In this document: piece by piece, positions 13,936-24,454 of the stretch
How positions within the stretch are numbered: the first letter of the stretch is position 1
How the letters are laid out: each line of letters starts with the position of its first letter
Source of the DNA: a virus
DNA: 64,000 nucleotides
Virus record (IMG/VR): IMGVR_UViG_3300020578_000037
Coordinates: 1 to 64,000 of that record
Strand: one strand, 5' to 3'
The notes under the pieces: model-generated
The model's input: only the letters and a program-made list of their open reading frames with translations
Database searches by the model: none
What the model was told of the DNA's origin: nothing
Program-made: the position numbers and the translations under genes

Positions 13936-16407
13936 CTATGTAGCAATAGTGTGTCTATATCCGGCGTGTACTCTTGATACCGTTCTTACAACAGGATCTA
14001 CTGTCCATAATGTAATAGTACTCGTAGTCCCATTAAACAATTGACCTCTATCATTTATACCTGTTCTACTAAATCTTAATGAAGTATTAAGAGCTACAGA
14101 AAATTGAGCACCCGCGGCAATATCTATATAACTCCCGGTAATAGCTGTCCAAACACTTCTTGTTGTTGTATCATTTAATCCTAATTGATATACATTATTT
14201 CTACCTGTGACATAAACATCTGTACCGGATAATGCTAACGCGTGGTCTGTACCTGGTGCTATCTTATCAAATCTTGGATTATTAATTAGTAGTATAGAGT
14301 TTACTGGTGTTAAGTAAGATCTATTAATATTATTATTTAGACCTAACTGACCTTGTTGATTATAGCCAGCTACATAAAGCTTATAAGGTGCGCTTGATCC
14401 TGAAAGCGCATATAATCCACTATATTTGCTACAATATATACTATTAAATCTCGGATTATTCAAAATAGTTATACCATCATCTGCTATGTAATTAGTTACA
14501 AGTGTAAATGTATTGGTAGCTGTATTATTTCCGTAGGATAATTGACCGTAGGTATTATCTCCTGTAGTATATAATGAGCCGTCGGAAGCAAGTGCTGCAG
14601 CAAATTCATAGCCAATAGATATATCAGACCAGCTACCAGGTATTTGAGTCCAGGTAGAAGCAGATAATGAAGTGCCTAATCCAATTTGTCCGGTAGAATT
14701 ATCTCCTGTAGCATATAAATCTGTACCTGATAGTGCAAGTGAGCTATAAAAACCAGCGGCTACCTTAGTCCAGAATCCGGATATTCTTGTCCAAGTAGGG
14801 TAATATATGAGCTGTGATAATCCAAGCTGCCCATTTTCATTATATCCTGCACCAAATAAAGCTGTTCCGTCACTAGTTGCGCTTAATGTAAGCGAATGTC
14901 TCAATCCTAAAGATGCGTTTGTAAATGTACCTATGTTACTATTTATAGTTGTATAGAAATCATTTATTGTATTAAGGCCTAATTGACCGTATGTATTATC
15001 TCCTGCTACTAATGCTGTACCAGGACCAACGGGTGAAGGACGCGATAGTGTTGGTGTAGGTGTAATTGTCCTTGTGGGTGTGGGTGTAGAGGTATTAGTT
15101 GGTGTGTTAGTAGGTGTATTTGTAGGAGTACTAGTAGGTGTGCGTGTGTTAGTTGGTGTTACTTCAGGTGTGGGTGTAGGATCTGGTAATCCAGATTCTG
15201 TAGGTGTTACTGTAGGTGTAGGTGTATATGTTGGTGTTTCTGTGCGAGTCGGGGTGTATGTTACTGTTGGTGTGTTTGAAATTGCTGGTGTAACCGGTAA
15301 TGTATAGGAAGGTGTATTTGATGGTGTTTTTGTAGGTGTAAACGTAGGTGTTACTGAGCGCGTAGGTGTAGATGTAGGTTGATTTGTTCTTGTAGGTGTA
15401 TGCGAAGGTGTGTTAGTTGGTGTAATAGAATATGTAGGTGTAAAGGTAAATGAAGGTGTGGGTGTTGGTGTCACAGCAGCTGTCTCTGTTATAGTGGGTG
15501 TAACTGCTGGTGTACGCGTGGGTGTTCTAGTAATAGTAGGTGTAGGAGTATTAGTAATATCTTGTGTAACTGTAGGTGTGACTGTTCTTGTAGGTGTGCG
15601 TGTAGGTGTTGGTGTTGGTGTACGCGTACGTGTAACTGTAGGTGTCGGTGTAGTAGTAGCTGTACGCGTAGGTGTTGGTGTATAATTTCTATTAGAGCGT
15701 CTATTTAATTCTTCATCTGGGGCTGTACTAAGTAGTAGAAAATTGCTTACAAAATTTGTATTATCATCGTTAAGTTCTATTAGTTCTACGCTTTTTTGAA
15801 TAGTATCTATACTAGAGGAAATTTGTGAAGAATTAACTAGATGAGGTGAGTCGAAGCGAAAAACCGTATCGGGTAGTATAGTTAGTTGTAAATTAAAGAC
15901 GTTTAGCGCTAAGTTACCATTTACGACAGATATAGTTGGATAGTATGTTATAGCACTTAGCGAGTTAGGAATATACACGTGTTCTATATTTTTTTCTTTC
16001 GGTGACCCTGGATCAAAAACAGGTTTGCTAGGGATATAATTTAAAACAGTATTTTTTTCTACATTTATAATATCACTACCATCATTAAAATCATATATTA
16101 TCTTTAGCGTCGCATAATATGTTTCATCAATACTTGATGGTGATATAACTAATGTAGTTTCTCCTTTATATAGTCCAAGATCAGCACTAAGAGTGGTATT
16201 AAAAATGGGGTATCCCCAGGGAAAGAAATCTCCGCCATCTGTGAGTGCTGTGTAAGCAGGTTCTAATGTGGTAAACTGCAAGCCATTCGCTGTGTTTGGC
16301 CAAGTAAAATTAGTACCGAAAGCGGGATCTAAAAATAGATAGTGATTTAAAACAGATGGTTTTTCGCTTATTTGAGTACTTGAAAGTACATAGCTAACTA
16401 AATTCAC
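13936..16407 (-). CDS. Thr/Pro-stalk fibre with C-terminal RCC1-type beta-propeller
   Basis: 823 residues, GTG start at 16407 supported by a TAAATA box five bases upstream. Residues 1-235 form a beta-rich head with a PKD-like part (IIYDFNDGSDIINVEKN, EHVYIPN). Residues ~238-460 are a Thr/Pro stalk. From ~470 to 823 there are RCC1-like repeats with the blade signature G-D-N-x-Y-GQLG (VAGDNTYGQLGLN, GAGYNENGQLGLS, ATGDNSTGQIGLG, TTGDNTYGQLSYG, VAGYNQQGQLGLN, VTGRNNVYQLGLN), ending YRHTIAT. About seven blades would close a propeller. RCC1 folds bind proteins or nucleosomes in cells; here it would be displayed at a fibre tip as a candidate receptor-binding head. Upstream of it lies the sugar-enzyme cassette. 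Confidence 0.85.
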   Translation of the reverse strand: MNLVSYVLSSTQISEKPSVLNHYLFLDPAFGTNFTWPNTANGLQFTTLEPAYTALTDGGDFFPWGYPIFNTTLSADLGLYKGETTLVISPSSIDETYYATLKIIYDFNDGSDIINVEKNTVLNYIPSKPVFDPGSPKEKNIEHVYIPNSLSAITYYPTISVVNGNLALNVFNLQLTILPDTVFRFDSPHLVNSSQISSSIDTIQKSVELIELNDDNTNFVSNFLLLSTAPDEELNRRSNRNYTPTPTRTATTTPTPTVTRTRTPTPTPTRTPTRTVTPTVTQDITNTPTPTITRTPTRTPAVTPTITETAAVTPTPTPSFTFTPTYSITPTNTPSHTPTRTNQPTSTPTRSVTPTFTPTKTPSNTPSYTLPVTPAISNTPTVTYTPTRTETPTYTPTPTVTPTESGLPDPTPTPEVTPTNTRTPTSTPTNTPTNTPTNTSTPTPTRTITPTPTLSRPSPVGPGTALVAGDNTYGQLGLNTINDFYTTINSNIGTFTNASLGLRHSLTLSATSDGTALFGAGYNENGQLGLSQLIYYPTWTRISGFWTKVAAGFYSSLALSGTDLYATGDNSTGQIGLGTSLSASTWTQIPGSWSDISIGYEFAAALASDGSLYTTGDNTYGQLSYGNNTATNTFTLVTNYIADDGITILNNPRFNSIYCSKYSGLYALSGSSAPYKLYVAGYNQQGQLGLNNNINRSYLTPVNSILLINNPRFDKIAPGTDHALALSGTDVYVTGRNNVYQLGLNDTTTRSVWTAITGSYIDIAAGAQFSVALNTSLRFSRTGINDRGQLFNGTTSTITLWTVDPVVRTVSRVHAGYRHTIAT
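15040..15685 (-). repeat. Thr/Pro-rich coding repeat, segment D
   Basis: Encodes about 215 residues of TPT-type repeat linking the PKD-like head to the RCC1 propeller. Imperfect copies share units with segments at 1-835, 7590-8860 and 23180-23730. Confidence 0.9.

Positions 16408-24454: not shown

What the first reader, a model, noticed from the sequence alone, without database searches (positions are those of the whole stretch)
13936..24454. A glycan-building cassette embedded among mucin-like tail fibre genes: possible phage self-glycosylation of its fibres
Four genes for sugar-active enzymes (16441-22642) lie directly between two fibre genes with long Thr/Pro stalks (13936-16407 and 22673-24454), in the same orientation and with minimal gaps. 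Two further Thr/Pro fibres follow downstream. The stalks look like mucin domains (about half Thr, most of the rest Pro). One enzyme belongs to a family whose known members attach GlcNAc to Thr or hydroxyproline in protein. Two other glycosyltransferase-like modules, an FkbM methyltransferase and a carbamoyltransferase could extend and cap the chain. Seen: gene order, domain motifs, repeat composition. Known: the family activities. Inferred: that the fibres are the acceptors, giving the phage O-glycosylated adhesin stalks (stiffness, protease resistance, or masking).
Basis: partly seen in the sequence, partly recalled or inferred. Interest (0 to 1): 0.92.

Follow-up and report, generated by a model that had tools for sequence, protein, structure and literature searches.

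The report
Phage cassette for mucin-like fibre glycosylation
This virus of bacteria carries, between two genes for fibre-like proteins with long threonine/proline stalks, a set of sugar-adding enzymes led by a relative of the enzymes that start mucin-type glycosylation, and related viruses repeat the pairing, so the virus probably sugar-coats its own fibres, although nobody has yet measured this.

Summary
Four enzyme ORFs (16441-22642) lie in one tight run between two ORFs with Thr/Pro stalks (40% Thr, 20-22% Pro). The first enzyme is PF11397 (GT60-type; E 5e-74); its predicted fold is closest to mucin-type polypeptide GalNAc-transferases (Z 23; next family 18). In 17 of 62 viral loci the frame is fibA, GT60, 2-6 variable genes, a two-GT core protein, fibB; all 16 clear fibA homologues keep a stalk. 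Of 20 GT60 records of at least 79 kb, 19 match the Thr/Pro pattern, 15 at least ten times; of 48 related records without GT60, 6 match. Thr/Pro neighbours recur in separate GT60 clades, bacteria included. XacN1, with a homologous cassette, was reported to have virion glycoproteins.

Against: in 22 of 27 loci L022-L048 no Thr/Pro gene is near; one relative (G065) has stalks but no cassette; 55 of 69 bacterial GT60 loci lack such a neighbour; the tree-corrected test is not significant, and fragments inflate the association. No glycan has been shown on a stalk. Phage virion glycosylation is already known in mycobacteriophages, so this is a new variant of a known kind.

The parts
22673..24454 (-). 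fibA: N-module, 199-aa Thr/Pro stalk (residues 238-436), C-terminal P-domain; presumed structural protein and glycan acceptor
   Evidence: 16 of 16 homologues over 50 bits keep a stalk of 146-452 aa
21308..22642 (-). GT60-type (PF11397) glycosyltransferase, presumed initiating polypeptide alpha-GlcNAc-transferase
   Evidence: Pfam 5.2e-74; phrog_24687 1.4e-159; predicted fold nearest ppGalNAc-transferases; DSH invariant in 47 sequences
20420..21295 (-). HtrL2: HtrL_YibB-type glycosyltransferase-like protein
   Evidence: PF09612 1.2e-6, over its cut-off
18849..20423 (-). Nol/NodU-like O-carbamoyltransferase (presumed capping)
   Evidence: PF16861 9.6e-63, PF02543 2.3e-24; phrog_1601 6.7e-119
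16441..18846 (-). core protein: FkbM methyltransferase + HtrL1 + C-terminal GT-A module (two tandem GT domains by predicted fold)
   Evidence: fold; HtrL1-GT core in 48 of 62 viral GT60 loci
13936..16407 (-). fibB: N-module, 230-aa Thr/Pro stalk (residues 235-464), C-terminal RCC1-like propeller
   Evidence: 19 homologues over 50 bits with tracts of 0-255 aa
7240..8925 (-). fibC: about 420 residues of Thr/Pro tract; possible further acceptor
1..1701 (-). fibD: two Thr/Pro stretches (411 residues), cut by the record's end; possible further acceptor
57809..58645 (-). RmlD-like (dTDP-4-dehydrorhamnose reductase-like) protein; possible donor-sugar supply (inferred)
   Evidence: PF04321 3.2e-19; TIGR01214 62 bits, under its cut-off of 224

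Best explanation
A phage-encoded mucin-type O-glycosylation system for the phage's own fibre-like proteins. Shown: enzymes and stalk proteins lie in one tight same-strand run; the first enzyme has the PF11397/GT60 sequence signature and a predicted fold nearest to enzymes that start mucin glycosylation. Inferred: made together late in infection, the GT60 enzyme puts an alpha-linked HexNAc (most likely GlcNAc from the host's UDP-GlcNAc) on Thr of the TPTxTPT stalks in the cytoplasm; HtrL2 and the two-GT core protein lengthen the chain; FkbM and the carbamoyltransferase cap it with methyl and carbamoyl groups. The stalk becomes a stiff, protease-resistant bristle. The swappable middle genes change the glycan's outer structure from phage to phage, as O-antigen clusters do.
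For: (1) Family: PF11397 5e-74. The GT60 enzymes named in a review passage put alpha-GlcNAc on polypeptide: Toxoplasma Gnt1 on Skp1 hydroxyproline, and the T. cruzi polypeptide enzyme (PMC6939170, passages); the latter is implicated in mucin-type initiation (reference title and passages of PMC8724618). (2) Fold: AF2 pLDDT 89; the first 41 Foldseek rows and the first 29 VIA entries are polypeptide GalNAc-transferases, best Z 23.2 over 279 residues, next other entry 18.4; a DSH or DAH string in all 163 GT60 rows. (3) Anatomy: 17 of 62 viral loci have fibA-GT60-(2-6 genes)-core-fibB; in three of them (L016, L019, L021) one more ORF lies between fibA and GT60. Of 30 middle-gene representatives scanned (17 from loci of the window's clade, 13 from others), 18 had a Pfam hit at E 0.01, 16 of them to sugar-, methyl- or sulfo-transferase families: GT10, GT25, GT2-like, PLOD-GT, sulfotransferase, FkbM, CmcI in the window's clade, GT11 and GT34 in others; some hits are under Pfam's cut-off; 12 of 30 had none. 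(4) Stalk kept in 16 of 16 fibA homologues over 50 bits, 33-45% Thr, although the N-modules of the 15 other than L003 (the window's own sequence) are only 28-50% identical. (5) Co-occurrence: of 20 GT60 records of at least 79 kb, 19 have a TPTxTPT match and 15 have at least 10. Among 52 anchor-found records not already known as carriers, 4 of 4 with GT60 have a match against 6 of 48 without. (6) Adjacency in 40 de-duplicated viral loci: 17 with a Thr/Pro ORF as immediate neighbour, 7.3 expected (p 0.0002); 69 bacterial loci: 9 against 4.4 (p 0.018). [quoted passage not shown] (8) No strongly hydrophobic stretch in the four enzymes (highest 19-residue mean 1.08).
Against: No glycan on any stalk has been shown. 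G065 has a stalked fibA directly followed by fibB and no GT60 in its 76.5 kb. Of 37 Thr/Pro-selected records of at least 50 kb, 22 lack PF11397, among them 6 of the 16 of at least 100 kb. In 22 of the 27 loci L022-L048 no Thr/Pro ORF lies in the held flank (up to 10 kb). Several large carriers have only 1-4 pattern matches (G010, G020, G028, G032) or none (G033). In XacN1 and RAS14 the tracts seen are not adjacent, the order of the middle genes differs, and the XacN1 authors saw no tail fibres. In bacteria 55 of 69 GT60 loci have no Thr/Pro ORF within two genes. The tree-aware test gives 4-5 pairs in favour, 0 against, 1-2 ties, p 0.06-0.125, and for records of at least 60 kb 3 in favour, 0 against, 2 ties, p 0.25; fragments that miss the locus lose both traits at once. 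The core's C-terminal module resembles a DNA-glucosylating enzyme weakly.
Confidence: 0.7

Rival explanations
1. The enzymes remodel the host's surface polysaccharide (LPS or capsule), to exclude competing phages or alter the receptor; the place among stalk genes only reflects shared late expression.
For: HtrL_YibB, GT25, fucosyltransferase, FkbM and carbamoyltransferase families also occur in surface-polysaccharide or Nod-factor loci (recalled; an A. baumannii LOS paper with HtrL in its text appears in the search listing). In many bacterial and phage loci GT60 has no Thr/Pro neighbour.
Against: Initiating family and predicted fold point to polypeptide; no strongly hydrophobic segment in the four enzymes; recurrent Thr/Pro adjacency in separate clades.
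Confidence: 0.15
2. The enzymes hypermodify phage DNA (hydroxymethyl-base glycosylation, carbamoylation).
For: C-terminal module: phrog_842 beta-glucosyl-HMC-alpha-glucosyltransferase 8e-5, TAGT 0.02 under cut-off.
Against: The cassette lies in the tail region; homologous three-gene set in the Jiulongibacter chromosome beside a Thr/Pro ORF; no TET/JBP match in 20 records, but the control was silent too, so inconclusive; no base-hydroxymethylase hit among the 20 window and L701 ORFs scanned (not all ORFs of the record).
Confidence: 0.07
3. The virion is glycosylated, but on capsid, sheath or another protein; the Thr/Pro stalks are merely rigid unmodified spacers.
For: Mycobacteriophages carry glycans on capsid and tail tube (Freeman 2023, seen only as cited in passages of PMC12619734 and PMC11256854); stalks exist without the cassette (G065).
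Against: Specific adjacency and co-occurrence with Thr/Pro tracts; the family's known acceptors include mucin-like Thr.
Confidence: 0.1

Closest known systems
GT60 polypeptide alpha-GlcNAc-transferases (Dictyostelium/Toxoplasma Gnt1; T. cruzi mucin-type enzyme)
   Same: Pfam family PF11397 well over cut-off (that PF11397 equals GT60 is recalled); T. cruzi acceptors are Thr of mucins (PMC8724618 passages)
   Different: Prokaryotic virus; clustered with extenders and caps; no prolyl hydroxylase among the 30 representative middle genes scanned; activity untested
Mucin-type polypeptide GalNAc-transferases (GT27)
   Same: Closest solved fold, Z 23.2; DXH-type motif (motif recalled)
   Different: No GT27 chain found by sequence in PDB chains
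Mycobacteriophage virion glycosylation (Freeman 2023, seen only as cited)
   Same: Virion proteins carry glycans; phage-encoded glycosyltransferases
   Different: Reported sites are capsid and tail tube; here Thr/Pro stalks are proposed; whether the enzymes are related was not tested
Xanthomonas phage XacN1 and Stenotrophomonas phages RAS14, CM1
   Same: Homologues of all four enzyme genes at 25-46% identity; XacN1 paper reports glycoproteins
   Different: Genomes of 320-385 kb; tracts seen are not beside the cassette; order of middle genes differs; the core match lacks the FkbM part (starts at residue 243-246)
LARGE1, LH3, chondroitin polymerase (two-GT enzymes)
   Same: Foldseek's best matches to the core protein are two-GT proteins; LH3 rows span both domains
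   Different: Low global TM (about 0.2), rmsd 17-18 over both domains; sugar specificity unknown

Membership tests
GT60 / PF11397 | Sequence family model over its cut-off | tested here: met
   250 bits against 21
GT60 / PF11397 | Conserved acidic-X-His metal/nucleotide motif (motif recalled) | tested here: met
   D117-S118-H119 invariant in 47; DSH or DAH in 163 of 163 rows
GT60 / PF11397 | Transfers alpha-GlcNAc to Thr or hydroxyproline of a polypeptide | not testable with these tools
   needs an enzyme assay
GT27 ppGalNAc-transferases | Same fold of the catalytic domain | tested here: met
   predicted model, Z 23.2, 279 aligned, rmsd 3.5
GT27 ppGalNAc-transferases | Detectable sequence membership | tested here: not met
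   no GT27 chain with phmmer or the A3 profile, E up to 1
HtrL_YibB | Pfam model over cut-off, in HtrL1 and HtrL2 | tested here: met
   44.1 and 28.8 bits against 24.1
HtrL_YibB | NCBIfam equivalog cut-off (YibB itself) | tested here: not met
   core protein 56 against 264.9 bits; HtrL2 not scanned there
FkbM methyltransferase | Family model over cut-off | tested here: met
   Pfam 56 against 22.7 bits; TIGR01444 just under, 37.1 against 37.7
NodU/Nol carbamoyltransferase | N and C domain models | tested here: met
   the NodU equivalog itself not reached, 154.7 against 1000
Phage DNA-modifying TAGT / TET pathway | TAGT model over cut-off | tested here: not met
   15.1 against 27.5 bits
Phage DNA-modifying TAGT / TET pathway | TET/JBP oxygenase in the genome | tested here: inconclusive
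   0 of 20 records; control silent
Phage virion self-glycosylation | Glycan shown on a virion protein | not testable with these tools
   only the XacN1 report for a homologous cassette

The most novel reading that the evidence does not exclude
Phages, and some bacteria, run a true mucin-type O-glycosylation system: a GT60 initiator, a two-GT extender and exchangeable capping enzymes that decorate Thr/Pro stalks of fibres, with cassette exchange giving fibre 'serotypes'. This would be a prokaryotic and viral counterpart of mucin glycosylation that moves between phages and bacteria.
Probability: 0.5. Interest if true: 0.88.

Novelty: new variant of a known kind. Interest (0 to 1): 0.76.

Why it matters
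If true, large environmental phages build their own glycoprotein bristles with an enzyme fold used for animal and protist mucins. It would give a reason for many of the 'TPTNTPT' low-complexity genes in phage metagenomes, add a class of phage surface variation outside the receptor-binding tip, and offer a soluble, compact kit for mucin-like glycosylation in bacteria.

Tried and rejected
Rejected or led nowhere: antisense 'VGV' ORFs across the stalks are shadows of the Thr/Pro codons. A recent DNA-level repeat expansion as the sole cause of the stalks: TRF arrays exist (period 6-102), most strongly in fibC and fibD, but all four Thr and all four Pro codons are used in the stalks, in roughly the proportions of other genes (ACA 62% against 48%, CCT 58% against 49%). 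Promoter or terminator signals: 62 promoter-like sites against 74.3 expected; 9 terminator-like against 5.7 expected; no clear signal. A hydroxylase partner as in the Skp1 pathway: none among the 30 middle representatives. TET/JBP search uninformative. Sequence search of solved structures: nothing useful. Literature: 'GT60' + 'bacteriophage' in no paper; phage + threonine-rich + proline + glycosyltransferase + tail: two irrelevant papers; other searches. The mycobacteriophage and DNA-glycosyltransferase papers are not held; I cite the former only through other papers' passages.

Limits of the counts. The 62 viral loci contain near-duplicates, and L003 has the window's own sequence. One search covered 48 of the 62 IMG/VR GT60 records plus 2 named phages; the 79-kb line was drawn after seeing the table; of the 30 shorter records 15 match. 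Searches covered 31 records, of which 3 were already known carriers and are left out of the 52; records already found by GT60 were not put into the 52, so its 4 carriers are ones that one search missed; the 52 were chosen by length (28 kb or more). The bacterial scan kept 80 of 255 relatives; 75 had a GT60 ORF in the script and 69 remained after a rough de-duplication; some 'bacterial' contigs are MAG pieces and could be viral. In one search L625 does not count as adjacent, because its Thr/Pro ORF lies between its two GT60 genes. Thr/Pro thresholds differ between and were chosen by me. In one search G028 was not examined, three shorter GT60 records (G017, G021, G034; 55-72 kb) showed no tract, and of four records without GT60 and without pattern matches three (G056, G059, G070) had none and one (G068) a 42-residue tract. 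The neighbour labels were set by hand, several loci there hold only about 1.2 kb of flank, and its 23 changes have no shuffled control. The FkbM part of the 801-aa model is poor (pLDDT under 60), and the VIA rows for that model mostly test residues 525-796.
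Full report
What is there. The window is the first 64,000 bases of an 84,688-base uncultivated virus record. Its structural genes lie mostly on the minus strand: terminase 50251-51963, sheath 47291-49582, tape measure 41258-43333, baseplate wedge 31069-32925. 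Then come two large ORFs (27605-31069 with PKD domains; 24456-27596 without a Pfam hit) and the reported region. Four enzyme ORFs fill 16441-22642 with gaps of 30, 12, -4, 2 and 33 nt between fibA, the enzymes and fibB. The Thr/Pro tracts of the four stalk ORFs hold 199-422 residues, 40-44% Thr and 20-22% Pro.

What the lead enzyme is. It belongs to PF11397 at 250 bits and to a PHROG of phage 'glycosyltransferases' at 1e-159. A review (passages read) places Toxoplasma Gnt1 (alpha-GlcNAc on Skp1 hydroxyproline) and the T. cruzi UDP-GlcNAc:polypeptide enzyme in GT60; the latter is implicated in starting mucin-type glycosylation. From 47 viral sequences (A3) AlphaFold2 gave pLDDT 89. Foldseek's first 41 PDB rows are polypeptide GalNAc-transferases. 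VIA-align ranks 29 such entries first, Z 23.2 to 19.7; the best other entry is 18.4. PDB holds many such entries, so the number of rows means little; the Z gap means more. No solved relative is found by sequence. The fold fits a peptide-acting HexNAc-transferase but does not prove one: polysaccharide synthases follow at Z 17-18.

What the other enzymes are. The core protein's residues 246-800 are modelled well, its FkbM part badly. Its first Foldseek matches are two-GT proteins such as LARGE1, chondroitin polymerase and LH3. VIA rows for LH3 and for mimivirus R699 span residues 241-796 and 245-788 with large rmsd (17-18), as expected for two domains in another arrangement, while most rows test only the C-terminal domain. 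Alignment of 31 sequences shows invariant W380-x-D382-x-G384 in the HtrL part and E626-D-D-M629 in the C-terminal part.

The cassette as a unit. A scan of IMG/VR with the GT60 protein gave 62 loci, near-duplicates and the window's own sequence (L003) among them. In 17 of 62 the order is fibA, GT60, 2-6 genes, core, fibB; in three of these one more ORF separates fibA and GT60; four further loci show one side only because the contig begins or ends there. CarbT is present in 4 of these 17. Of 30 middle-gene representatives scanned with Pfam, 17 from loci of the window's clade and 13 from other clades, 18 had a hit at E 0.01. Sixteen of these are sugar-, methyl- or sulfo-transferase families (GT10, GT11, GT25, GT34, GT2- and GT4-like, PLOD-GT, sulfotransferase, FkbM, CmcI and other methyltransferases; several under Pfam's cut-off); the other two are a crAss muzzle domain and a DnaJ-like hit under its cut-off; 12 had none. 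So in the window's clade the first and last enzymes are constant and the middle is exchanged, as in O-antigen clusters. All 16 fibA homologues over 50 bits keep a stalk (146-452 aa, 33-45% Thr), and three weaker ones (L016, L019, L021) do too; fibB homologues have 0-255 aa. The core occurs in 48 of 62 loci; in L028-L034 and others it precedes GT60.

Co-occurrence. With the pattern for T-P-T-x-T-P-T, 34 of 50 GT60 records match. Of the 20 of at least 79 kb, 19 match and 15 have at least 10 matches, while the reversed control pattern gave at most 6 in a record. Large carriers with few or no matches still have Thr/Pro/Ser tracts: G010 61 aa, G020 87, G032 87, G033 65; G028 was not examined. Records without GT60 and without matches, scanned the same way, gave none in G056 (80 of 82 kb), G059 and G070 and one of 42 aa in G068. 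Records found through the terminase and helicase serve as control: of 52 not already known as carriers, 4 carry PF11397 and all 4 match the pattern; of 48 without it, 6 match. Of those six, G060 and G072 end inside the gene next to where fibA should be and G052 is 28 kb. In G135 the only match in 196 kb lies in the gene next to GT60. On a helicase tree of 43 records the counts are 13 of 13 against 4 of 30 (Fisher 6.5e-8, uncorrected), and 12 of 12 against 3 of 14 for records of at least 60 kb. But phylogenetically independent pairs give 4-5 in favour, 0 against, 1-2 ties, p 0.06-0.125, and 3, 0 and 2, p 0.25, for the longer records. Fragments that miss the locus lose both traits together and inflate the association; the eight members of 61-211 kb of the clade of G070, negative for both, suffer less from this but are one clade.

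Adjacency. In 40 de-duplicated viral loci, 17 have a Thr/Pro ORF as an immediate neighbour of GT60 against 7.3 expected when the focal ORF is drawn at random within the locus (p 0.0002). In 69 bacterial loci it is 9 against 4.4 (p 0.018), and within two ORFs 14 against 8.4 (p 0.009). Fourteen of the 17 viral loci are one clade. The others (L053, L055 and L062, and the bacterial cases) sit elsewhere in a 163-row GT60 tree, on which the hand-set neighbour state changes at least 23 times, without a shuffled control. In L053, L055 and L062 none of the neighbouring ORFs matches the window's fibre, baseplate or core proteins.

Outside phages of this type. Jiulongibacter sediminis carries GT60, CarbT and the FkbM-HtrL-GT core in the same order at 50, 52 and 50% identity, divergent from a 262-aa ORF with a 152-residue Thr/Pro/Ser tract. 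In Pseudoduganella rivuli GT60 starts 17 nt after a long ATTEP-repeat ORF. XacN1, RAS14 and CM1 carry homologues of all four enzymes. The XacN1 paper (PMC5852040; [quoted passage not shown] ORF334 is the GT60 homologue. Which proteins they are is in a supplement I could not read, and the same paper saw no tail fibres.

Counter-evidence. G065 shows fibA (stalk 160 aa) followed directly by the fibB N-module, with several more stalk genes and no GT60 in its 76.5 kb: stalks do not need this cassette at this place. Of 37 Thr/Pro-selected records of at least 50 kb, 22 lack PF11397. In 22 of the 27 loci L022-L048 no Thr/Pro ORF lies in the held flank, which is up to 10 kb and less where the contig ends. 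Most bacterial GT60 loci (55 of 69) have no such gene within two ORFs.

Mechanism and verdict. I commit to phage-encoded mucin-type O-glycosylation of the fibre-like stalks, at about 0.7. Gene order, families, predicted folds and association are shown; the sugar, the acceptor residue, the order of extension and the use (stiffness, protease resistance, masking) are inferred. As phage virion glycosylation is known in kind (mycobacteriophages, seen only as cited), I call this a new variant of a known kind. A search for GT60 with bacteriophage found no paper in the held library.

Noticed in passing
L625:5972-13175 (Jiulongibacter sediminis JN14-9): Cultured bacterium carries homologous GT60-CarbT-core genes in the same order, a second GT60 paralogue, a Thr/Pro-rich ORF with a hydrophobic stretch near its N-terminus, and a nucleotide-sugar dehydrogenase nearby.
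   Followed up: partly
L691:3-5122 (Pseudoduganella rivuli): GT60 gene starts 17 nt downstream of a very long ATTEP/APT-repeat ORF.
   Followed up: partly
L374:3737-9994 (record G065): Apparent empty site: fibA followed directly by the fibB N-module without the cassette, plus stalk ORFs with tracts of up to 723 aa nearby.
   Followed up: partly
L057:9823-11868: GT60 next to a protein with a crAss-like muzzle C-terminal domain (PF25729 4.5e-18), so the enzyme probably also occurs in crAss-like phages.
   Followed up: no
L035:8745-11260 and L049:1048-3655: Tandem pairs of GT60 genes in one cassette.
   Followed up: no
window 57809-58645: RmlD-like sugar-nucleotide reductase in the same phage record.
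   Followed up: no
G087 (IMGVR_UViG_3300031787_000004, 201,987 bases): 595 matches to the Thr/Pro pattern on one strand and no PF11397; neighbours not examined.
   Followed up: no
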